From: Candidatus Tanganyikabacteria bacterium
Lineage (GTDB): Bacteria; Cyanobacteriota; Sericytochromatia; S15B-MN24; VGJW01
Length of the DNA stretch: 33,009 nt
Direction: 5' to 3'
Assembly (NCBI GenBank): GCA_016867235.1
Contig: VGJY01000032.1
Coordinates: 1 to 33,009, forward strand
The position numbers were made by a program, and so were the translations under genes. This document shows positions 1,103-15,521 of this stretch, piece by piece. The notes under the pieces were generated by a model. The model saw only the letters and a list, made by a program, of their open reading frames with translations. It had not been told where the DNA came from and made no database searches. Each line of letters starts with the position of its first letter. Position 1 is the first letter of the stretch.

Positions 1103-1894
1103 CTATTCGTCCTGGTCTCGATCCGCCTGAGATCTTGTCTTGGCGGTGTCTGCGCGGTAACTCGGGACGTTGAACTCGAGGATGGTCGAGTGGTGGACTA
1201 CGCGGTCGATCGCCGCGGCGGTAGTCATGGGGTTCTTGAAGATCTGGTCCCACTCGCTGAAGAGCAGGTTGCTGGTGATGATCATCGACCGCCGCTCGTA
1301 GCGCTCGGCCATGAGCGTGAAGAGCACCTCCATCTCGTCTCGGTCCTGCTTGACGTAGCCGATGTCGTCGAGGATGACGACCTCGAAGGCGTCGAGCTTG
1401 GCGAGGGCCCTGGGCAACTCGAGGTCGCGCTTGGCCGCAAGTAGATGCTGGACGATGTCGTAAGTCGGGGCGAAGAGCACGGAGCGGCCGGCCGCGACAA
1501 GGTCGTGCCCGATCGCGCAGGCGGCGTGACTCTTGCCGACGCCGGGCAGGCCGAAGGCCAGGATGTTGTCGGCACGGTCGAGGAAGTGGCCGCGAGCCAG
1601 TTCGCGGATCTTGGCGACGAGCTTGCGCGGGAGGCGGTTGAGATCCAGGGTCTCGAAGGTCTTGGCCACTGGGAGCTTGGATGCTCGACGCAGCCGCTCG
1701 ATGCGACGGTCCTTGCGATCCTGCGCTTCCATCTCGAAGACCTCGACCAGGGTATCCAACGCGTCGGCCTGGCCGGCTGCGGTGAAGCGGGTGAATGCCT
1801 CGGCCGCGACGGTCGGGAGCCGAAACTGGCTTGCGAGTTCGGCGAAGCGCTCAGCAAGCGCTGGGGACGGTGGTGACTTGGTTGAACTGGGCAT
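1103..1894 (-). CDS. istB: IS21-family helper ATPase IstB
   Basis: IstB is the AAA+ ATPase (DnaC/DnaA-like) that assembles on target DNA and activates the IstA transposase. The 263-residue protein has the family's usual length. It shows Walker A GLPGVGKS (residues 115-122), Walker B VVILDD (172-177) and a sensor-like ITSN segment near residue 205. The ATG at 1894 has an AGGAG Shine-Dalgarno six bases upstream, which lies inside the end of istA. The two genes overlap by 44 bp, as is normal for the family and consistent with translational coupling. The frame is intact and ends at TAG 1103-1105, about 83 bp inside the left IS end. Confidence 0.95.
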   Translation of the reverse strand: MPSSTKSPPSPALAERFAELASQFRLPTVAAEAFTRFTAAGQADALDTLVEVFEMEAQDRKDRRIERLRRASKLPVAKTFETLDLNRLPRKLVAKIRELARGHFLDRADNILAFGLPGVGKSHAACAIGHDLVAAGRSVLFAPTYDIVQHLLAAKRDLELPRALAKLDAFEVVILDDIGYVKQDRDEMEVLFTLMAERYERRSMIITSNLLFSEWDQIFKNPMTTAAAIDRVVHHSTILEFNVPSYRADTAKTRSQADRDQDE

Positions 1895-3374
1895 GGCAGG
1901 CTCCTGACAGCAGCTCGTCGTAGCCGAGCAAGTTGGGGACCAACGGGGCGACCGGGTCGGTGACCGGCCTTATAGCGGGCTCGACCAGGGCTTTGACGTC
2001 GCCGTACTCGAACGGTGTGGCCTCCTCTAGGAGGAGCTCCAGGGCCGTATCGACCTCGGACTCCATCGTGGTGGCGGCGAGTTGGAGGATGCGGACGTAC
2101 TCGATGTCGGCCCGCGTACCGCGCCACGAGCACAGGGCGTCGTAGGCCAGGCGGAAGGTCAGCGCCGGGAAGAGATCCTCACGGTAGCGGTACCGCGCAA
2201 AGGCCCCCGGCTTGGCCACCAGCGAGTGGATGATGTGGCGGTAGTCGATCCGGTGGCCACTCTTGCCACGCAGGCGAGGGAAGGCCTCGACGCGGCGGCC
2301 GCGGTAGAGGACCTCGATGAAGTCCGCGTGGACGCGCGCCGTGACCTCGTGGCCGATGAGCCGCGACGGCACCGAGTACGAGTTGTCGAGCACACGGATG
2401 CAGCTCCATTTGCGGACCCTGGTGCGCACGTCGGTGTAGGTGGGGACGGCCACCGCTGGCAGTGGCTTGAGCAAGTGCTGCTCCAGGGCGAACAGGTCTT
2501 GTTTGCGGCGGTTGAGGCGATCCACGACCACCTGCAGGAAGGCGCGGTAGTCCTCCTGGCTCTCGAAATCGCGGCTCCCCCGCACGATGAGAGCCTGCTC
2601 CATGGCCGTCTTGATCGTGTCGTGGGCCTTCTCCACGACGCCGTTCTCGTTGGACTTGCGCACGCGGATGCGTGTCGACCGGACGCCGTAGTGGTCCATG
2701 AATGCCTTGAATCGCCGATTGAGGGCCCGGCCGCCCTCGTGGCCGAGCTGGTGGGTGGCGGCCGAGAGGTTGTCCGTCCGCCAGATCTCGGTGACGCCGC
2801 CGATGTCCCAGGCTGCGCTTTGAATGCCGGCAGTCAGGGCCTCGAAAGTCTCGCTGAACGTGACGTTGGCCCAGCGGCGGCCGCTATGGCTCAGGACCAG
2901 CTCGAAGATCAGGTGGGGAAACGCCTCGCCGCGGATGGTGACGCCGAGCTCCTCGGCGTGGGTGAAGTCGATCTGCGACTCTCGGCCCGGCGGGTGCTCC
3001 TGCGGGAAGAAGACTTCCTTCTCCGGTCCGGCGAGCGCCCGCCAGTAGCGCATGCGCCGCTGAAGCGTCCGGATCTGGCCCGCCTGGTAGCGGCCGGGGA
3101 ATCGCTCTTCCAGACACTCGAAGACGGTGGTCGCCAGGAGCTTGCCCTTCTCGTCAGCCTGCAACAAGGGCACCACCACTTGCTCCCAGACCTCGCCGAA
3201 GGGATCCTTGCGGGTCCGCCAGTCGTGCGGTGCCCGCCCGAAAGACGGCATTCCTTGCCGCTCCCACTTTCTGGCGGTTCGCGCCGACATTCCGGCCGCT
3301 GCCGCGGCCACTTCCTGTGTCTTGCCTTCCATACGCCCGCGTCGATACAGCCCGATCTGCTCATCCGTAACCAT
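1851..3374 (-). CDS. istA: IS21-family transposase IstA
   Basis: IstA is the DDE transposase that cuts and joins the element ends. The 507-residue protein starts with a helix-turn-helix region (residues 5-40, including AAGMSARTARKWERQG). The RNase H-fold core follows, with the catalytic triad visible as D136 (SQIDFTH), D201 (WRTDNLS) and E248 (NGVVEKAH). I chose ATG 3374 because the protein then begins MVTDEQIGLYRRG, typical of IstA, and an AGGGA lies about 10 bases upstream. A GTG at 3410 would add 12 residues that do not look conserved. The stop overlaps istB. Nothing looks truncated. Confidence 0.95.
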   Translation of the reverse strand: MVTDEQIGLYRRGRMEGKTQEVAAAAAGMSARTARKWERQGMPSFGRAPHDWRTRKDPFGEVWEQVVVPLLQADEKGKLLATTVFECLEERFPGRYQAGQIRTLQRRMRYWRALAGPEKEVFFPQEHPPGRESQIDFTHAEELGVTIRGEAFPHLIFELVLSHSGRRWANVTFSETFEALTAGIQSAAWDIGGVTEIWRTDNLSAATHQLGHEGGRALNRRFKAFMDHYGVRSTRIRVRKSNENGVVEKAHDTIKTAMEQALIVRGSRDFESQEDYRAFLQVVVDRLNRRKQDLFALEQHLLKPLPAVAVPTYTDVRTRVRKWSCIRVLDNSYSVPSRLIGHEVTARVHADFIEVLYRGRRVEAFPRLRGKSGHRIDYRHIIHSLVAKPGAFARYRYREDLFPALTFRLAYDALCSWRGTRADIEYVRILQLAATTMESEVDTALELLLEEATPFEYGDVKALVEPAIRPVTDPVAPLVPNLLGYDELLSGACHAQFNQVTTVPSAC

Positions 3375-3435
3375 GGGATTGTTGTCCCTGGCTGAACACG
3401 GGCGCCGCACGATGCGGCTGTCACGGGCGGCCGGC

Positions 3436-4276: not shown

Positions 4277-4285
4277 ATGCGGCAA

Positions 4286-4906
4286 GTGGCGACAGTCCAG
4301 GGTGCGGCAAGCAAGATTCAGGCTCCGACGCAGATCGAGGCCCCCAAGGCCCCTGCGCGGAAGGCCAAGGTCGAGGGCGTCGATCCCCGGCCGGAGATCG
4401 ACAGCGTCGCCCTCACCGGCGTCGCGACGCACGACGGCCAGGCCATCCAGACCGCCACCCGCGCGAAGGGCGTGCCCGACGCTGAGGTCAAGTACCGCCA
4501 GGCCCTGCGCGAGTTCCTCCGCGGCGGCGCCGACTACAAGGGCGCCGAGAAGGTTCTTGGCGACTCCGGCGTGGCCGCCAAGGAAATCGCCAAGATCCAG
4601 GCCGAGGAAGCTTCCAGCTACTTCCGGATGAGCCGCGACGAGTTCGTCCGCACGGCCGACGAGCACATGACGCTATCGGCCCGCTTCGGCCCCAAGCCGC
4701 GGCCGCAAGCCGTCATCCGGCTGGAGTCCCTCAAGCGCAGCGCCCACACCGCATTCGAGGGCGCCGTCCGCGCCGACGCACTGCTCGGCGGACTGGATCC
4801 GCAGCGCGGGCAGGACCTCGCGGCGATGGAGGCGGTCCTGCTCCGGATGGGCTTCCCCAAGGACCAGGTCGTCATCAGCAGCCGCCAGGCCAAGCCGGCG
4901 CTGTAG
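4286..4906 (+). CDS. Hypothetical protein, 206 aa
   Basis: I do not recognise this family. The protein is soluble, with no signal peptide or membrane segment. The first 50 residues are Ala/Pro/Lys-rich and probably disordered. Residues 60-200 look mainly helical (VKYRQALREFLRGGADYKGAEKVL and later alternating charged and hydrophobic stretches). GTG 4286 is preferred because GGGAGG (4271-4276) lies nine bases upstream. An in-frame ATG at 4277 touches that site and is too close. The gene converges on the GH57 gene at 4965. Its expression may be affected by the inverted repeat at 4244-4276. Confidence 0.6.
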   Translation: MATVQGAASKIQAPTQIEAPKAPARKAKVEGVDPRPEIDSVALTGVATHDGQAIQTATRAKGVPDAEVKYRQALREFLRGGADYKGAEKVLGDSGVAAKEIAKIQAEEASSYFRMSRDEFVRTADEHMTLSARFGPKPRPQAVIRLESLKRSAHTAFEGAVRADALLGGLDPQRGQDLAAMEAVLLRMGFPKDQVVISSRQAKPAL

Positions 4907-4964: not shown

Positions 4965-7094
4965 TCACCTCTCTTCCGCGCGGACTTCCTGCGTCAGCGT
5001 CGTCGTCCAGACGCCGCCCGGCGCCAGTTCGAAGTGCCAGTGCGGCATGACTGCGGTGCCCTGGTAGACGCGTTCGAAACCCGCCTCGCTCTGAGAGATG
5101 GTCTCGATGGGCACGCGCCACACCGTGGTCGGCTCCGCCCAGCGCAGCGCCCAGGTCAGGCCGCGCGCCGCGTCCCGCGACGCCACCTCGGTGACGGCCG
5201 CGAGTTCGGCCTCTGCCTCGTCGCGGCCGTCCGGCAGCGAGTTGTTGAATTCGACGCCGAACCATAGCGCCACGGGCCTGTCGCCGGCGTTGCGCACCTC
5301 GTAGTCGGCCTGGAGGCGGGCCGCGTCGCCCGGCACGGTCAGGCGCTTGGTCAAGGTGATCGGCCAGAACTCCTGGCCGACCCAGACGTGGCCGTCCCTG
5401 CGGAGGGTGACCACCACGCGGTCGGCCTCCCGCGCCACGCTCGCCTCGTAGGCCTCGATGACGAAATCTCCCTGCTCCCCGTACGTCACGTCGCGGAACG
5501 ACCCGAGGTGGCTGTCCGGGTGCAGGAAGTGGTCCAGCAGGGAGACCCGCCGGTACCAGTCGTAGTGGAGGCGCTTTTCCAGGCCTTCTTCCTTGGTCAG
5601 TATGAGCTCGTGGATGGACCTCGCGCTCCCCGCCTCGGCCGCCTGCGCCGGGATCGCCCGGGGCAGTTTCGCGTGGTAGGCCTCCCGGCGCCGAGCCAGG
5701 GTGTCGAGGAGGTTGCATGCCGCCGGCTTGTAGTCGAGTTCGAACAAGGCCCCGCCCCGGCACGTGAAGTACGCGTTCTGGACGTGGTTGCGGACCAGGA
5801 CCTCGGGACTGCCGTCGCCGTCGAAATCCTCCACGCGAGCTTCGAGGAACGGCGCGTCCCGGTGCGCGAGGCGATCGCAGATGCGCTCGGCCTCGAGCAG
5901 CGCGCCGTACGCCGCCCGCCGGAGGTGCGGCAAGTACAGCCCGCCGAACACGCCATGCCAGTAAGGATCGTTGGACTGCCCGCGCCACAGGTGGTGCAAG
6001 GCGGCGACCCAATCGTCCGAGAACGCCCCCGGCTCCTGGGCGTCGCCGCCCGGCACCAGCACCTGCCGGGTCTGCATCGCTTCGGCCACCTGCGCGGCCA
6101 CGGCGAGCATCTTCTTGTGGAGGTTGTTGGCCTCGGGGTAACGCACCAGGAAGTGCCGCCAGAAGCCGCCGCGCAGGAAGGCGTCGCCGTGCGTCTCCTG
6201 CGCCTTCTCGTAGGCCGCCTGCAGGTCGGCCGGCAAGGCCCAGCCCTGCATCTCGCGGTAGGTCCCGGCCGGCAGGTAGATGCGCCCCCAGGGCCGGTAG
6301 CGCGCCCGGTACGCGGCGGGCGTCGTGGGCACGATCCAGTCGGCGTTTTCCTCCAGCAGGGTGAAGAACTCGTCCAGCCAGCCGGCCTCGTAGACCGTGC
6401 GGTGCGTCCCGGGCCAGACCCCGAACTTCTCGCCGCTGTCGATCGCCACGACGAGCCGCGAACCGTCCGGCGTCGCGGCCTGGCGCAGGTAGTCGATCGC
6501 CTTGCGCGGCGACTCGAACGGCAGGAGCCGGCAGAATTCCTGGTTGAGCGGGAAGATCTGCAGGTACTGGCCCTGCTCCTCGCTCTGGTAATAGCCGAAG
6601 AGCTCCGCCCCGCGCAGGCCCGCCGCCCGGAACAGCGAGTCGTCGAGGCAGGTCCACGCGACGCCGGCCTCGGCTATCGGCCGCACCAGGTGCGGCTCCC
6701 AGACCCGCTCGGCCAGCCACATCCCCTCCGGCACCGCGCCCAGGAGGCGGGCGAGGGCCTGCTTGTGATAGACGATCTGCTCGACCTTGTTGTCATCGGG
6801 GATGATGGCAAGAATCGGCTCGTAGTGCGCTCCGGCGAGCAGCTCGACCTGGCCCGACACCACCAGCTTCTTCAGGCGGCCAAGTAAGTCCGCGCGCTGC
6901 GCCACCAGCCACTCGAGCAGGTACCCCGAGTAGTGCAGCGTGACCTTGATGCCCGGGTGGCGTTCCAGAACGGCCAGAAACGGCGCATAGGCCTTGTCGC
7001 AGGCCTCGGCGACCACCCAGTCGAGATTGCCGAACGGCTGATGGTTATGCAGGCCGAACGCGAGGTGGAGCTTGGGTTGCTGTCCGAGGAGCAT
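4965..7094 (-). CDS. GH57 4-alpha-glucanotransferase/alpha-amylase-like protein
   Basis: The 709-residue protein has the length and layout of the GH57 4-alpha-glucanotransferase/alpha-amylase type (Thermococcus litoralis-like), which acts on alpha-1,4-glucans in the cytoplasm. Family blocks are clear: HNHQP (residues 16-20), GQVELL (81-86) and WLAERVWEP (126-134) with nucleophile E129. The C-terminal half carries the beta-sandwich domains seen in this type (for example VRNHVQNAYF). The catalytic-acid block reads IDSGEKFGVWPGTH (218-231), where I recall the usual form as DDGEKFG. The Asp directly before GE is Ser220 here, with an Asp one residue earlier. Activity is therefore uncertain. No signal peptide. 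ATG 7094 lacks a strong Shine-Dalgarno but lies 28 bp after the upstream GH57-like gene, so the two form an operon. Confidence 0.88.
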   Translation of the reverse strand: MLLGQQPKLHLAFGLHNHQPFGNLDWVVAEACDKAYAPFLAVLERHPGIKVTLHYSGYLLEWLVAQRADLLGRLKKLVVSGQVELLAGAHYEPILAIIPDDNKVEQIVYHKQALARLLGAVPEGMWLAERVWEPHLVRPIAEAGVAWTCLDDSLFRAAGLRGAELFGYYQSEEQGQYLQIFPLNQEFCRLLPFESPRKAIDYLRQAATPDGSRLVVAIDSGEKFGVWPGTHRTVYEAGWLDEFFTLLEENADWIVPTTPAAYRARYRPWGRIYLPAGTYREMQGWALPADLQAAYEKAQETHGDAFLRGGFWRHFLVRYPEANNLHKKMLAVAAQVAEAMQTRQVLVPGGDAQEPGAFSDDWVAALHHLWRGQSNDPYWHGVFGGLYLPHLRRAAYGALLEAERICDRLAHRDAPFLEARVEDFDGDGSPEVLVRNHVQNAYFTCRGGALFELDYKPAACNLLDTLARRREAYHAKLPRAIPAQAAEAGSARSIHELILTKEEGLEKRLHYDWYRRVSLLDHFLHPDSHLGSFRDVTYGEQGDFVIEAYEASVAREADRVVVTLRRDGHVWVGQEFWPITLTKRLTVPGDAARLQADYEVRNAGDRPVALWFGVEFNNSLPDGRDEAEAELAAVTEVASRDAARGLTWALRWAEPTTVWRVPIETISQSEAGFERVYQGTAVMPHWHFELAPGGVWTTTLTQEVRAEER

Positions 7095-7122
7095 GGCTTG
7101 GTAGGCCCTTGCGGGCCCCCAA

Positions 7123-8790
7123 TCATATCACGCCGCCAGGCCCCATCCCGCTCCACGGCCTGTGCCCGGGCGGCGCGTCCCGGGCCGCCAGGTGCTGGTC
7201 GGCCGACAGCAACCCCAGGTCGATCGACTGGAACGGGTTATCCAGCGCCTCGTAGCGCTCGAGCAGCGGCGTGTCCATTTCCTCTGGATTGGCCGTGTCC
7301 AGCATGTAGGCCAGACGCCGGAAGCGGTCGAGGTGCTCGCGCACGCGTTCGGCGGCGTAATCGAGCTCTTCTCCGCCGCGGCCGATCATCTCCGGCCACT
7401 CCCCGGCGATCAGCAACAGGGCCTCGCGGGTCGCCTGGGCGAGCATGCGCACGAGGAGGGGGTTGCCGACCCCGCCGAAGCGATCGGCCAGGGACTCGGC
7501 GTGGTCGAGGGTCGTCGCGACCGCCTCCCAGTACCAGGTGGTATTGTCCGCCTGCCAGACCCGGAAGTCCCCTTCGCCCTCCCACGACGACGGCGTGAGG
7601 TCGGGCAAGCTCTGCAACTGATGGCGGTGGACCGCCTCGGCCCCGCTCTCGAGCTTGATCCCGGCCGCATGCGCCTGCCGCACGAACTCGGTAAGCCACG
7701 GCACGCCTTCCGGCCAGGCGCTGAAGCGGCGGGCATCGAGCGTCAGGCAGAGCACGCCGCCCCGGCCCGTACGGTCCTTGTGAGCCGCGAGCAACTCCCG
7801 TGCGCGCACCACCGCCGCGGCCGCCTGGCGCTTCCAGAGTCCCTCCGCCTCGGACGGGTCGTAGCGCCGCGCCTGCGCGTCGTGGGGGGCCGCTCCGACC
7901 GTGATCTCGAGGGCGCCGGGACCGGCCGCCAGGTCCGGCGGCATTCCGCCGCGGCGCCAGTACCGCCGTCCGAGCGGATCGGCCGGCCCGAAGTACTCCG
8001 GCTGTCCGGCGAACGAGTCGACGAACGCAGCAAACTCGCCATGCCGCACCAGGGCCACCAGGCCGTCCGACAGTCGCTGGGGATCCAGGGCCGATCGCGG
8101 CGCGCCTTCCATGCCCGGTAGGCCCGGCATCGGCCCGCGCAGCGCCTTCTCCCCGACGAAGGTGTAGGTAACCCCCGAGCCCGTCAGGAGATCGTTGATG
8201 CTCTCGCCTTCGGCCCCGGGCGCCACCGCGCCGCCCGGGAGCCACATGCCCGCGACCGCGTGCTCGAGGTGCTGCTCGGCCGCCCGCAGGCCCTGCAGCA
8301 CCTGCGCCCGGCGGGCCGACACGCGCGGCAGGAGCGGCAGGACCGCACCCGTGGCCGGGTACGCGATGGCCTCGATGGCACCCGCGTGCTCGACCTCCCG
8401 CAGCGACCGCACGAGGTCGCGCCGGTGCTCCTCGAAGAACGCCAGCAGGACGCGCTCGTCGCGCGCTTTCTGGGCCACGGCCGCGGCGGCCAGATCGGCG
8501 TCGGCCGACCGGGCGTCCTCCTCCGCCTGCGAGAGGCGCCGCAGCATGAATTCCTCGAACCCGGTGCGTAGCAGGAGATCGGATAGCTGCTCGGCGACGA
8601 GCGGCGAGAGCGCCACCGTGAACCGCGGCGCGATCCCGCCGGCCTGCAACTCCCGGATCGCTTCGAGAACGGGGACGATGCCGTCGCAGATGGCCCGGTA
8701 GAGCTGATACTCCCCGAACGGCCACATCCCTGCCCGCCGCACGTACGGGACGTGCAGCAGGATCGCGATGGCCAGGGACCCGATGGGCAT
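7123..8790 (-). CDS. GH57 branching-enzyme-like protein, active site degenerate
   Basis: The 555-residue protein follows the plan of GH57 1,4-alpha-glucan branching enzymes (TK1436 type). It has an N-terminal HVPYVR block (residues 13-18) and a C-terminal SSWEGEGDFRVW...TTWYW block (about 399-418), followed by LAQATREALLL and GEWPEMI, all typical of the family. The catalytic blocks are altered. The usual HAH is LLH, and the nucleophile block WLPE is WLPG (residues 183-186), so the Glu is missing. The acid block DTELFGHWW reads DARRFSAWP, keeping only D352. I infer a non-catalytic or repurposed homologue, perhaps a glucan-binding or regulatory partner of the next gene. ATG 8790 has a GAGAGG Shine-Dalgarno. 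The shared 55-bp block lies just upstream. Confidence 0.8.
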   Translation of the reverse strand: MPIGSLAIAILLHVPYVRRAGMWPFGEYQLYRAICDGIVPVLEAIRELQAGGIAPRFTVALSPLVAEQLSDLLLRTGFEEFMLRRLSQAEEDARSADADLAAAAVAQKARDERVLLAFFEEHRRDLVRSLREVEHAGAIEAIAYPATGAVLPLLPRVSARRAQVLQGLRAAEQHLEHAVAGMWLPGGAVAPGAEGESINDLLTGSGVTYTFVGEKALRGPMPGLPGMEGAPRSALDPQRLSDGLVALVRHGEFAAFVDSFAGQPEYFGPADPLGRRYWRRGGMPPDLAAGPGALEITVGAAPHDAQARRYDPSEAEGLWKRQAAAAVVRARELLAAHKDRTGRGGVLCLTLDARRFSAWPEGVPWLTEFVRQAHAAGIKLESGAEAVHRHQLQSLPDLTPSSWEGEGDFRVWQADNTTWYWEAVATTLDHAESLADRFGGVGNPLLVRMLAQATREALLLIAGEWPEMIGRGGEELDYAAERVREHLDRFRRLAYMLDTANPEEMDTPLLERYEALDNPFQSIDLGLLSADQHLAARDAPPGHRPWSGMGPGGVI

Positions 8791-8892: not shown

Positions 8893-9005
8893 CCGTTTCT
8901 CCGACAACCCGGACAGGAAGCCTGAGACCGGTCCAATCATGGGTGGAACCGGTGATCCCGGCCGCTTCTCCCGGCCGAGATCGTGGGAGCAGGGAGTCGC
9001 GTATT

Positions 9006-10622
9006 TTGGCCGTCAGATTAGAGAATCCGGTTACCGGCGCATCGATCCGGCGCTTGCGATCGACGAACGTCGGCTCCACGTCCGTGCAGGGCGGAGGCGG
9101 CGTTGCCAAGCCGAAGACCGTCTGGATTCCCAGCCCCAACTTCAGCAGCCGGCCGGGCGGCGCGGGCGACATCGACACCATCGTCCTCCACCACACCGCC
9201 GGCGGCGGCACGGCCGAGAGCGTCGGGCGCTACTTCCAGAACCCGAGCGCGCAGGTGAGCTCGCACTACATCGTGGGCAAGGACGGCACGATCGTGCAGT
9301 CGGTGCCGGACGGCAAGCGGGCCTGGCACGCGGGCACCAGCACTTTCAAGGGCCGCAGCGACGTCAACGATTTCTCCCTGGGCATCGAAATAGTCAACCG
9401 CGGGGACAACCAGGACCCCTACACCGACGCGCAATACGAGGCGCTCGCCGACCTGGTGGCCTGGATGATGAAGACCTACGACGTGCCCTGGGAGCGCATC
9501 ACCGGCCACAAGGACGTGGCGCTGCCCAAGGGTCGCAAGGTCGATCCGTCCAACAACTTCAGCTACGACCGCCTCAAGCGGGAGGTCATGCAGCGGCTGG
9601 GCGGCCAGGCCCCCGGGCCGCGGCCCGAGCCCAAGCCGGAGCCGAAACCCGAACCCGGCCCCAGGCCCGGCCCCGGCGGAACCTACGTCGTGCGCAAGGG
9701 CGACTCGCTGTCGCTCATCGCCAAGCGCGAACTGGGCGACATCAACCGCTGGCCCGAGATCTACGAACTCAACCGGGACAAGATCAAGAACCCGAACCTG
9801 ATCTATCCCGGCCAGGTGCTGCGGTTGCCGGGCACCAGGCCCGAACCGAAGCCCGAGCCGAAGCCGCAGCCCAGGCCGGAACCCAGGCCGCAGCCGCAGC
9901 CGGTTCCGCCGCCGGTGGGCCAGCCGCCGCGACCGCAGCCGGTCCCGCCGCCGGTGGGCCAACCGCCGCAACCGCAGCCGAATCCTCGGCCCTGGCCGTG
10001 GCCGAGCCCGAATCCGAATCCGGGCCCCGACCCGCGGCCGATCCCGCGGCCGGTGCCGCCAGGCGGCAGCCCGATCCCGGGCCCCAATCCGCGGCCCTGG
10101 CCGTGGCCGAGTCCCGGCCCGAATCCCGGACCGAACCCGGGCCCGAACCCGATCGCCGGCCAGGAGGACAATCTCGGCTGGGGCATGCGCTATGCCGGCT
10201 CCCTGCTCAAGGGCATCGAGAGCATGAAGTCGTCGGTGTACCTCTCGGAAGGCGTCGCCGGCGGCTACATGGGCGGCGTGGGCCGCGTCGGCTTCGGCCA
10301 GTTCTTCGGCCTGCTCAAGGCCAACTTCCTGACCGCCGCCATCACGTCCGGCGTCTCCAACGTGCTCGATCTGGTCCGCGGCAAGACCGACCCCAAGCAC
10401 GCCCTGGTCAACTTCGCCACCGACACCGCCGCCTACACCGGCATCGGCGCGGCCGCCACCGCCATCGGCGGCGCGGTCGGGTCGATCGTCCCGGGCCTCG
10501 GCACCATCGTCGGCATCGGCGTCGGCGCCGTGGTGGGCTTCGGCCTCTCGTGGTTCTACGAGAAGTTCCTGCGGTCCAAGGCGCAGACCAGGGTCGCGCA
10601 GGTGGCCGGCCTGCCCGGCTAA
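9006..10622 (+). CDS. N-acetylmuramoyl-L-alanine amidase with LysM, Pro-rich linker and Gly-zipper domain
   Basis: The N-terminal domain is a zinc amidase of the Amidase_2/AmpD type that cuts the peptide from peptidoglycan glycan strands. Likely zinc ligands, numbered from TTG 9006, are H62 or H63 (VLHHTAG), H168 (GHKD) and D180 (KVDPS). A LysM domain follows (226-275, YVVRKGDSLSLIAKRE to LIYPGQVLRLPG), then about 120 residues of Pro-rich repeats. The C-terminal domain (395-538) has a glycine-zipper hydrophobic stretch (TGIGAAATAIGGAVGSIVPG) and is paralogous to the protein at 14844-15521. No signal peptide is visible, odd for a wall hydrolase. TTG 9006 has AGGGAG nine bases upstream; an upstream GTG at 8943 gives 21 more residues and cannot be excluded. 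The stop overlaps that of the convergent gene. Confidence 0.88.
   Translation: MAVRLENPVTGASIRRLRSTNVGSTSVQGGGGVAKPKTVWIPSPNFSSRPGGAGDIDTIVLHHTAGGGTAESVGRYFQNPSAQVSSHYIVGKDGTIVQSVPDGKRAWHAGTSTFKGRSDVNDFSLGIEIVNRGDNQDPYTDAQYEALADLVAWMMKTYDVPWERITGHKDVALPKGRKVDPSNNFSYDRLKREVMQRLGGQAPGPRPEPKPEPKPEPGPRPGPGGTYVVRKGDSLSLIAKRELGDINRWPEIYELNRDKIKNPNLIYPGQVLRLPGTRPEPKPEPKPQPRPEPRPQPQPVPPPVGQPPRPQPVPPPVGQPPQPQPNPRPWPWPSPNPNPGPDPRPIPRPVPPGGSPIPGPNPRPWPWPSPGPNPGPNPGPNPIAGQEDNLGWGMRYAGSLLKGIESMKSSVYLSEGVAGGYMGGVGRVGFGQFFGLLKANFLTAAITSGVSNVLDLVRGKTDPKHALVNFATDTAAYTGIGAAATAIGGAVGSIVPGLGTIVGIGVGAVVGFGLSWFYEKFLRSKAQTRVAQVAGLPG
9897..9974 (+). repeat. Two 39-bp tandem repeats in the Pro-rich linker
   Basis: Near-identical 39-bp units start at 9897 and 9936 and encode the 13-residue unit QPVPPPVGQPP(R/Q)P. 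A second repeat further on, encoding NPRPWPWPSP, occurs at about 9981 and 10086. The low-complexity linker is likely to vary in length between strains. Confidence 0.8.
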
Positions 10623-12437: not shown

Positions 12438-13634
12438 TCAGTCCGCGAATTCGGCCAGGCGGATGCGAAAGTGCTCGTCGGGCGCTTCGTAGTAGGCCTC
12501 GGGGCTCAGATCCGCAAGGACCGAGTTCGTGGCGGCGGCCCGCAAGGGACGCCGTTGCCGGGCGAAGGCCCGGAATGCCGCGGCGGCGGGCTTCTCGCTG
12601 CCGTCGGCCCGCAGCAGGCCGAAGCTCCGTTCGGGGAGCCTCTCGTCGAACGGCGGTCGCTCGCAGACGTCCGCGGCGACATCCGAGTAGCAGTACACGA
12701 AAGCCCCGGCGGCACCGCCCTCCCAGAGGCCGCTCAACGTCTCGCCGAGGTACTCGGCGGCCTGCTCTTCGGACACGAGGTAGGCGGTGCGATGCGTCTG
12801 CCCTTCGTGATAGTCCTCGAAGCGGGACTCGGCGCCCCGGGAGACCATGGGCCGGCCCAGGTCCATCGCAAGCACGCGCCTGGCCGCGAGATGACCGGCC
12901 AGATTCGCCACGAAGAGCACCTCCTGCGGATCCGGTCCCATGTCCCTGACCCGCAGCCCCACCATGTCTTCCGGCGCGCTCATATCGTCCGGGCGAATGC
13001 GGTCGCGCAGCAGATCTTCGGCCCCAACGGTGTACAGCGCCGGATGGCGCGGGTCGAGGCGCTTGACCTCCCCGCCGATCAAGGCGTTCCAGAGCCACAT
13101 CGCTTCGCGGTTCGTCGGCTCCACGACGCGGCCCAGTTCGCTGCCCACGCACCACCCCCAGAGCGCCGGATGGTCCCGGTAGCGCGGCACGACTTCCCGC
13201 AGGAGGTTGACCTGGGCGCGGAGCATCGCGGGATCGGCCAGCAGGTCGCGCACCCTGCGTCGCACCCGCATGCCGATGGACACGCGCCGCGGCAAGGGAT
13301 CGGCGTCATCCTGCTCGTCCCGCAGCGTCCACCAGGGCAGCCAGTTGACGCCGCACTGGTGGCCCGAGAACAGCACCGGCAGCACCTTCAAGCGGTTGGC
13401 CGCCGCCAGGTCGAACACCGCGTCGAGTTGCCGGAGCGCCACGTCGGACACCAGATCCGGCCGGGTCTGGAAATCCTCCCAGATCAGCGGCAGGCTGACG
13501 GCCTGCGCCCCCAGGGCGCGAATGCGTGCGAAATCCTTGCCTATTTCCTCGGCATCGAAGGCCTTCCAGAACTCGAGGCCCTTGGTCCGGGGCCAGTAGT
13601 GGAGGCCGAGCAGGAATCGCGAGGCGGCCGGCAA
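12438..13634 (-). CDS. Clan-A-like (TIM-barrel) glycoside hydrolase
   Basis: The 398-residue protein looks like a (beta/alpha)8 glycosidase of the GH5/GH2/mannanase kind. The N-terminus runs LLGLHYWPRTKG, and the strand IRALGAQAVSLPLIWEDFQ fits strand 2 of such barrels. A likely acid/base Glu is E166 in WGWCVGSEL, at the place of the usual NE(P) motif. E269 in VSRGAES is a candidate nucleophile, but I cannot align it with certainty. There is no signal peptide, so it should act in the cytoplasm on imported oligosaccharides. Translation starts at TTG 13634, ten bases after the stop of the ABC ATPase gene, and the Shine-Dalgarno is weak. The exact GH family and substrate are not readable by eye. 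Confidence 0.7.
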   Translation of the reverse strand: MPAASRFLLGLHYWPRTKGLEFWKAFDAEEIGKDFARIRALGAQAVSLPLIWEDFQTRPDLVSDVALRQLDAVFDLAAANRLKVLPVLFSGHQCGVNWLPWWTLRDEQDDADPLPRRVSIGMRVRRRVRDLLADPAMLRAQVNLLREVVPRYRDHPALWGWCVGSELGRVVEPTNREAMWLWNALIGGEVKRLDPRHPALYTVGAEDLLRDRIRPDDMSAPEDMVGLRVRDMGPDPQEVLFVANLAGHLAARRVLAMDLGRPMVSRGAESRFEDYHEGQTHRTAYLVSEEQAAEYLGETLSGLWEGGAAGAFVYCYSDVAADVCERPPFDERLPERSFGLLRADGSEKPAAAAFRAFARQRRPLRAAATNSVLADLSPEAYYEAPDEHFRIRLAEFAD

Positions 13635-13643
13635 GGGAGGCCC

Positions 13644-14732
<1,089 letters not shown>

Positions 14733-14843: not shown

Positions 14844-15521
14844 CTACCGGGGCAGCGTGGGCGCCAGGTAGCCGTTGGTCGGCTGCTGGTAGTAGCTGCC
14901 GGGCGGGGTGGGCGGGAGCGCCGTCCCGGAGTTGCTGCCGACGCCGGAGAACTTCGCCGCCAGGCTCTGGGTGATGCCCGGACGGATCTTGTCTTCGTAC
15001 AGCTTGCCGAAGAGGAAGCCGCACAGGGCGCCGACGCCCATGCCGATGATGGTGCCGATGCCGGGCACGATGCTGCCGACCATGCCGCCGATCATCGTCG
15101 CGGAGGCGCCGATGCCGGTGTACGCCACGGTGTCGGCCACCGTGTTCGCCAGGAACTGCGTCCCGCTGGACTTCCCGCGCACAAGGTCGATGAGGTTCGT
15201 GAACACCGACATCGCGCCGGAAATCAGGAAATTCGACTTGAGCAGGCCGGGCAACGAGCGCAGGCCGGCGCCGGCGACCCCGCCGATGCCGCCCATGCCG
15301 TAACCGCCGCGATAGCCGCCCGAGAGCCCCTCGTAGGCGTAGCGCGAGTACTGGGAGAACTGCATGGCATCCTTGGCCGCCCGCAACTGCTGGAACGAAC
15401 TGATGACCGGCACGGCCATCCGCATCCCGCCGATGTTGTCATCGTTGGCAAAGCCGCCGAGCAGACCGCCGCCTGGCTGGGCGCCCTGGACCGCGCCGCC
15501 GGGAACCGCGCTGATCGCCAT
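14844..15521 (-). CDS. Gly-rich protein, paralogue of the amidase C-terminal domain
   Basis: The 225-residue protein has no named family that I know. From about residue 60 to 185 it matches the last 140 residues of the amidase at 9006-10622. Shared landmarks are LLK(S/A)NFL, a conserved LDLVRGK/IDLVRGK, ADT(V/A)AYTGIGA, AT(M/A)IGG(M/A)VGSIVPG and a final YE near the end. The hydrophobic glycine-zipper part could insert in or lie along a membrane. Before it is a Gly/Tyr-rich stretch (GLSGGYRGGYGMGGIGG), and the C-terminus is Pro/Gln/Tyr-rich (PPTPPGSYYQQP). No signal peptide is evident. ATG 15521 has an excellent GAGGAGGGAG Shine-Dalgarno. The upstream gap holds copy 2 of the shared 55-bp block. 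Confidence 0.85.
   Translation of the reverse strand: MAISAVPGGAVQGAQPGGGLLGGFANDDNIGGMRMAVPVISSFQQLRAAKDAMQFSQYSRYAYEGLSGGYRGGYGMGGIGGVAGAGLRSLPGLLKSNFLISGAMSVFTNLIDLVRGKSSGTQFLANTVADTVAYTGIGASATMIGGMVGSIVPGIGTIIGMGVGALCGFLFGKLYEDKIRPGITQSLAAKFSGVGSNSGTALPPTPPGSYYQQPTNGYLAPTLPR

What the first reader, a model, noticed from the sequence alone, without database searches (positions are those of the whole stretch)
4965..8790. Tandem GH57 pair, both changed at catalytic positions
The branching-enzyme-like protein lacks the nucleophile Glu (WLPG for WLPE), the first His of HAH and the Glu in the acid block, while its C-terminal family blocks remain. Its neighbour keeps the nucleophile (WLAERVWEP) but reads DSGEKFG where I recall DDGEKFG. 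A clear pseudo-enzyme next to a possibly altered partner suggests a two-subunit glucan enzyme, or two glucan-binding regulators, rather than ordinary glycogen metabolism.
Basis: partly seen in the sequence, partly recalled or inferred. Interest (0 to 1): 0.6.

Follow-up and report, generated by a model that had tools for sequence, protein, structure and literature searches.

The report
Paired disabled starch-remodelling enzymes
Two neighbouring genes in an uncultured relative of cyanobacteria encode glycogen-remodelling enzymes that kept their shape but lost key catalytic residues; one has been conserved in that disabled form across a whole bacterial family, which suggests a new, non-catalytic job such as glucan binding.

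Summary
P2 (7123-8790, minus) is a GH57 branching-enzyme homologue. It lacks the nucleophile (Glu183 to Gly), the first active-site His, and most of the cleft; it keeps the acid Asp. P1 (4965-7094, minus) is a GH57 4-alpha-glucanotransferase homologue with an intact nucleophile, but its Ser220 sits exactly at the general acid/base Asp214 of the solved enzyme 1K1W. Both models keep the GH57 fold.

The tandem is old: intact versions occur in Sericytochromatia, Vampirovibrionales and Desantisbacteria. The dead P2 is a 100%-supported clade shared by all five sampled genomes (four genera) of the window's Tanganyikabacteria-like family. The one pair close enough to test is under purifying selection (dN/dS about 0.05-0.2). 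In P1, Glu123 and Asp214 are invariant in 72 of 72 relatives outside the order; inside it Asp214 is lost in two genomes and Glu123 in two others, where P2 is intact. A second intact GH57 branching enzyme and a GH77 cover the chemistry in the window genome.

Best reading: a redundant glucan-remodelling operon kept as non-catalytic glucan-binding proteins. Binding, complex formation and inactivity are inferred. "GBE-like" and "4AGT-like" GH57 proteins are published; the tandem with alternating losses appears new.

The parts
7123..8790 (-). P2: GH57 branching-enzyme homologue, 555 aa, predicted catalytically dead (pseudo-GBE)
   Evidence: ORF; Pfam BE_C 56 bits and partial GH57; aligns to 3N8T/5WU7/3P0B over its length; AlphaFold model TM 0.83 to 5WU7
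4965..7094 (-). P1: GH57 4-alpha-glucanotransferase (TLGT-type) homologue, 709 aa, nucleophile kept, acid/base replaced
   Evidence: ORF; Pfam GH57 + AmyA-A_glucT_m + AmyA-gluTrfs_C; 441.6 bits to 1K1W; model pLDDT 90.8, TM 0.94 (target-normalised) to 1k1x
7095..7122 (-). 28-bp gap between P2 stop and P1 start, consistent with one operon
   Evidence: same-strand gaps of 48-93 bp in five relatives
8233..8235 (-). P2 Gly186 (GGC) at the nucleophile position Glu183 of TK1436
8758..8760 (-). P2 Leu11 at the first His of the HxH motif (His10)
7735..7737 (-). P2 Asp352, the retained general acid (Asp354 of TK1436)
7729..7731 (-). P2 Arg354 replacing Glu356 of the DTELFG block
6708..6710 (-). P1 Glu129 (GAG), the retained nucleophile (Glu123 of TLGT)
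6435..6437 (-). P1 Ser220 (AGC) at the general acid/base position Asp214 of TLGT

Best explanation
P2 and P1 descend from an intact, probably co-transcribed alpha-glucan remodelling pair: a GH57 branching enzyme followed by a GH57 4-alpha-glucanotransferase. In this order of Sericytochromatia other enzymes (a second GH57 branching enzyme, a GH77 glucanotransferase) can do the chemistry, so pressure on catalysis was released while the proteins were kept. In the window's family P2 became a fixed pseudo-enzyme with the GH57 fold, the WPxGE and Trp407/Trp416 substrate-side residues and the helical C-terminal domain. In the window's own lineage P1 then lost its general acid (Asp to Ser) while keeping its nucleophile and the other active-site residues checked, so it should bind an alpha-1,4-glucan but cleave it very poorly or not at all. 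I propose that the two now act as non-catalytic glucan-binding proteins that scaffold or regulate the active glycogen enzymes, possibly as a complex. Shown: gene pair, residue changes, clade-wide conservation, purifying selection in one pair of relatives, intact alternatives elsewhere in the genome. Inferred: inactivity, glucan binding, complex formation, regulatory role.
For: Catalytic positions lost in both. The dead P2 is a 100/100 clade of five genomes (four genera) with a long stem, 833-892 bits to its own profile for the four full-length copies against 320 for the next, intact relative; the 25 best non-family loci all keep HSH/WLPEC/DTEL. In P2, 53 of 145 columns conserved in intact relatives stay identical in four family members, and 13 are replaced by one and the same new residue, including His10Leu and Cys184Gly. 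G001 against G004: P2 dN/dS 0.05-0.22 in its N-terminal part and 0.08-0.10 in its C-terminal part, P1 0.05-0.14, branching enzyme 2 0.03-0.07. P1 of the window deviates at 8 of 91 near-invariant columns, no more than intact relatives G001 and G006 (8 each); G008 deviates at 2, one of them the nucleophile. Folds intact. GH57 acid/base D352N and nucleophile E256Q mutants of Aquifex amylopullulanase were crystallised with bound glucans (PDB titles). Dead P2 occurs with an intact second GH57 branching enzyme in G000, G001, G002 and G004, while G007 and G008, which have no such second copy, keep P2 intact; GH77 is present in all 11 genomes.
Against: No binding, activity or interaction data. Loss of catalytic residues does not always abolish activity: the GH13 amylase BmaN1 is active with an aberrant triad (PMC5347038). 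P2 evolves clearly faster than branching enzyme 2 in the same genomes, which also fits slow decay. Asp214 is intact in P1 of G001 and G004, so P1 in the family need not be dead. dN/dS comes from one pair of relatives and does not include the window's lineage. G003 is 64% complete, so its lack of a second branching enzyme means little.
Confidence: 0.5

Rival explanations
1. Two-subunit enzyme: P2 is a non-catalytic subunit that presents or positions glucan for a catalytically competent P1, as ISA2 does for ISA1 in plants. In the window, P1 would retain weak or altered activity despite Ser220.
For: Tandem order and spacing conserved over three families. G001 and G004 combine dead P2 with P1 intact at all catalytic residues; G007 and G008 combine P1 lacking Glu123 with intact P2. 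ISA1/ISA2 shows that a noncatalytic paralogue can be conserved as a subunit (PMC12510319).
Against: In G000 and G003 both proteins have lost a catalytic residue. P1 occurs without P2 in G005 and G006 and apart from it in G002, so P1 does not need P2 everywhere. No interaction evidence.
Confidence: 0.22
2. Slow decay: redundancy removed the need for either protein, and the pair is drifting toward loss without a new function.
For: Intact alternatives present. P2 branch lengths are about five times those of branching enzyme 2 between G000 and G001. Losses at different catalytic residues in different lineages look like relaxed constraint: 4 of 74 deviations fall on the two catalytic columns against about 1.6 expected by count.
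Against: Open frames of full length in the sampled family members, apart from G004 whose P2 is split over two contigs; purifying dN/dS in the one testable pair; 53 conserved positions kept and 13 uniformly replaced; P1 64-66% identical across three genera.
Confidence: 0.2
3. New chemistry: P1 with Ser220 or P2 with Gly186 acts on a different substrate or by another mechanism that does not need the missing carboxylate.
For: Active glycosidases with aberrant catalytic residues exist (PMC5347038). P1 keeps nucleophile, both His, Glu79, Trp120, Trp357 and Glu216.
Against: S, N and D occur at the same position among close relatives, which does not suggest a fixed new mechanism. P2 lost most of its cleft, and its cleft loops are modelled with low confidence.
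Confidence: 0.05
4. Sequence or assembly error in a metagenome-assembled genome.
For: The named genomes of the order used here are metagenome-assembled.
Against: P2 changes recur in five assemblies. Ser220 and Gly186 each need two or more base changes from the usual codons; frames and GC3 are normal.
Confidence: 0.03

Closest known systems
[quoted passage not shown]
   Same: Each protein on its own fits the definition: related to the branching-enzyme or 4-alpha-glucanotransferase specificity, with one catalytic residue missing.
   Different: The paper describes the groups separately; the parts read give no taxonomy below Bacteria and mention no gene pairing. Whether the window's proteins fall in the same clades could not be tested (sequences are in a supplement not readable here).
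Thermococcus kodakarensis GH57 branching enzyme TK1436 (3N8T)
   Same: P2 has the same fold (TM 0.83) and BE_C domain, and keeps the acid Asp, His12, Trp407 and Trp416.
   Different: P2 lacks Glu183, His10, Cys184, Tyr233, Trp270, Glu356, His360 and Trp361.
Thermococcus litoralis 4-alpha-glucanotransferase TLGT (1K1W, 1K1X, 1K1Y)
   Same: P1 has the same three-domain architecture and fold (TM 0.94, target-normalised) and the nucleophile, both His and Glu216.
   Different: General acid/base Asp214 is Ser220.
Plant isoamylase pair ISA1/ISA2 (PMC12510319)
   Same: A noncatalytic paralogue conserved with a glucan-active relative; non-catalytic roles are documented and attributed to glucan binding.
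   Different: Isoamylase-class debranching enzymes that form complexes; here the family is GH57, the reactions differ and no complex is shown.

Membership tests
GH57 (Pfam PF03065) | GH57 profile match above curated cut-off and GH57 fold | tested here: met
   P1 150.4 bits; P2 34.6 bits over a partial stretch, cut-off 21.2; Foldseek to GH57 structures
Active GH57 enzyme | Catalytic Glu (strand 4) and Asp (strand 7) both present | tested here: not met
   P1: Glu present, Asp replaced by Ser. P2: Asp present, Glu replaced by Gly
GH57 4-alpha-glucanotransferase (TLGT type) | GH57 + AmyA-A_glucT_m + AmyA-gluTrfs_C; Lys in the acid block (DDGEKFG) | tested here: met
   P1: three domains; Lys223 kept; the Lys signature is from PMC6037648
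GH57 4-alpha-glucanotransferase (TLGT type) | 4-alpha-glucanotransferase activity | not testable with these tools
   Needs purified protein; the acid/base is missing, so P1 is not filed as this enzyme
GH57 branching enzyme | BE_C C-terminal domain | tested here: met
   P2: PF09210, 56.1 bits
GH57 branching enzyme | Glu-Cys at the nucleophile site, Leu in the acid block, HxH motif | tested here: not met
   P2 reads WLPGG, DARRF and LLH; Cys and Leu signatures from PMC6037648
[quoted passage not shown]
   definition in PMC6037648
GBE-like / 4AGT-like GH57 proteins | Falls in the published GBE-like or 4AGT-like clades | not testable with these tools
ISA1/ISA2-like heteromeric glucan enzyme | Physical complex of a catalytic and a noncatalytic subunit | not testable with these tools
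   Only gene adjacency shown

The most novel reading that the evidence does not exclude
A bacterial two-protein glucan sensor or scaffold built from two former GH57 transferases, in which the lineages of one order disabled either the branching-enzyme half, the glucanotransferase half, or both, while keeping the pair. It would be a prokaryotic counterpart of the plant ISA1/ISA2 noncatalytic system.
Probability: 0.3. Interest if true: 0.6.

Novelty: new variant of a known kind. Interest (0 to 1): 0.42.

Why it matters
Single GH57 proteins without catalytic residues have been catalogued but, in the literature held here, none was found with an assigned function. A tandem in which either member, or both, has lost a catalytic residue while the genes stay together gives natural comparisons (dead/intact, intact/dead, dead/dead) that make the role of GH57 pseudo-enzymes testable. 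It also warns against annotating these genes as active branching enzyme and amylase in uncultured genomes.

Tried and rejected
Simple assembly error: rejected because of recurrence and multi-base codon changes. A fusion of P2 in G002 (open frame of 975 aa): probably only an upstream open frame, because homology starts at the Met of MSERALV. A recent decay of P2 in the window alone: rejected by the family-wide clade. The two catalytic losses being fixed together: rejected, since P1 keeps both catalytic residues in G001 and G004. Whether Asp214 was lost once or twice in the family: unresolved (AU test p 0.15 for holding G000+G003 together in P1; a GH77 tree gave 59/69, but a wrong frame was taken for G001). 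Literature on GH57 pseudo-enzymes by that word, or on such a gene pair: nothing beyond PMC6037648. Gene neighbourhood as a functional clue: weak; only a MalK/UgpC-like ATPase is conserved near the pair in the family. Prediction of the two-protein complex was not available.
Full report
**What is there.** Two adjacent minus-strand genes, 28 bp apart, encode P2 (7123-8790, 555 aa) and P1 (4965-7094, 709 aa). Pfam gives P1 the full 4-alpha-glucanotransferase architecture (GH57, AmyA-A_glucT_m, AmyA-gluTrfs_C), and P2 a partial GH57 match plus the branching-enzyme C-terminal domain. P1's only PDB match by sequence is 1K1W (441.6 bits); P2's matches are the GH57 branching enzymes 3N8T, 5WU7 and 3P0B/1UFA, and then 2B5D, titled alpha-amylase AmyC.

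**Residues.** In the alignment to 1K1W, P1 keeps the nucleophile (Glu123, here Glu129), but Asp214 is Ser220. Glu123 and Asp214 are stated to be nucleophile and general acid/base in PMC5347038. P2 has Gly186 for Glu183, Leu11 for His10, Gly for Cys184 and Arg354 for Glu356, and lacks Tyr233, Trp270, His360 and Trp361. It keeps Asp354 (Asp352), His12, Trp407 and Trp416.

**Fold.** AlphaFold models (mean pLDDT 80.3 for P2, 90.8 for P1) match branching enzyme 5WU7 (TM 0.83) and 1k1x (TM 0.94, target-normalised). In P2 the low-confidence segments 218-228 and 269-306 lie in the region of the lost cleft loops.

**Relatives and names.** The genome (6.12 Mb, G000) belongs to a small class of the cyanobacterial phylum. 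Matching records name its relatives as Sericytochromatia, with a Candidatus Tanganyikabacteria genome (G002) in the same family. Handles used: G001-G004 same family; G005-G009 same order. P1 occurs in the sampled genomes of the order and in none of the other eight genomes of the class. P2 sits directly upstream of P1 in G000, G001, G003, G007, G008 and G009; in G004 the gene is cut by contig ends, and in G002 the two genes are 3.7 kb apart and on opposite strands. Intact pairs are also adjacent in a Vampirovibrio and a Desantisbacteria genome, and flank a GH15 gene in L099 (named only as an uncultured cyanobacterium); L100 (Vampirovibrionales) has a similar-sized gene in the same place, not itself scanned. 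The ancestral setting is thus probably an alpha-glucan operon.

**How the losses are spread.** Dead P2: G000, G001, G003 and G004 (Gly at the nucleophile; G004 scored on its N-terminal part) and G002 (Glu kept, but His10, Glu356 and the cleft lost). Intact P2: G007, G008, G009, G010 and the Vampirovibrionia-type genomes checked. The dead sequences form a 100/100 clade with a stem of 1.66 changes per column, and no other genome of 386 sampled in the phylum scores near them (320 bits or less against 833-892 for the full-length members). In P1, Glu123 and Asp214 are each 72/72 outside the order. Within it: Asp214 to Ser (G000), Asp214 to Asn (G003), Glu123 to Gly (G007 and G008), Glu216 to Ser (G002) and Glu216 to Ala (G007). 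So Asp214 is lost only where P2 is also dead, and Glu123 is lost only where P2 is intact.

**Not plain decay.** The window P1 differs from 91 near-invariant columns at 8 places, the same as intact G001 and G006; G008 differs at only 2, one being the nucleophile. G001 and G004, the only close pair, give dN/dS of about 0.05-0.22 for P2 (by part and method), 0.05-0.14 for P1 and 0.03-0.07 for branching enzyme 2. In P2, 53 of 145 columns conserved in intact relatives are kept and 13 carry one shared new residue. But P2 also evolves about five times faster than branching enzyme 2 between G000 and G001, and across the order the catalytic columns of P1 changed at least as often as other conserved columns (4 of 74 deviations, about 1.6 expected). 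The safe statement is that the requirement for catalysis was released while the protein was kept; selection for loss of catalysis is not shown.

**Why catalysis could be released.** The window genome has an intact GH57 branching enzyme on contig 256, next to a DUF4912 gene, two further GH57 genes, and a GH77. Dead P2 goes with such a second branching enzyme in G000, G001, G002 and G004; G007 and G008 have no such second copy and keep P2 intact. G003 is too incomplete to score.

**Mechanism.** Best-supported: non-catalytic glucan-binding proteins. GH57 amylopullulanase mutants at the acid/base (D352N) or nucleophile (E256Q) were crystallised with bound glucans (PDB titles; the roles of these two residues are inferred from the GH57 pattern), so a protein like P1, natural Asp to Asn or Ser, is expected to bind without turnover. 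The plant ISA1/ISA2 complexes are a documented case of noncatalytic subunits shaping alpha-glucan structure (PMC12510319). That analogy is a lead; no binding or complex was tested.

[quoted passage not shown] P1 and P2 fit those definitions one by one. The tandem arrangement and the alternating losses within one order were not found in the papers held. Hence a new variant of a known kind, of moderate interest.

**Limits.** The named relatives of the order are metagenome-assembled; there is no second genome of the window's genus; dN/dS rests on one pair; the number of Asp214 losses is unresolved.

Noticed in passing
window 8943-10622 (+) and 14844-15521 (-): A hydrophobic, glycine-rich C-terminal stretch of the LysM/amidase protein resembles the separate 225-aa ORF, which has no Pfam match; similar ORFs lie near the pair in relatives (cluster 7).
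   Followed up: partly
window 13644-14732 (-): MalK/UgpC-like ABC ATPase, conserved near the pair in several genomes of the family.
   Followed up: partly
window 12438-13634 (-): A 398-aa ORF reads like a TIM-barrel glycoside hydrolase but has no Pfam or NCBIfam match.
   Followed up: no
window 1103-3410 (-): IS21-type transposase with an apparent IstB-like helper close to the contig end.
   Followed up: no
window 4277-4906 (+): 209-aa protein with no Pfam match, convergent with P1 and conserved beside it in G001 and G004.
   Followed up: no
L064:9546-11591 and L065:9515-11605: Intact P2 of G007 and G008 carries a 133-137-aa insertion, low-complexity by eye, after the residue matching position 101 of the aligned window frame.
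   Followed up: partly
L099:2150-8175 and L100:1-5642: In L099 a GH15-type gene lies between the intact branching enzyme and glucanotransferase genes; L100 has a gene of similar length there.
   Followed up: partly
G000-G009: Only weak GT5 glycogen-synthase matches (best E between 1e-4 and 1e-18) in the order, against 5e-61 in G010; the chain-elongating enzyme there is unclear.
   Followed up: no
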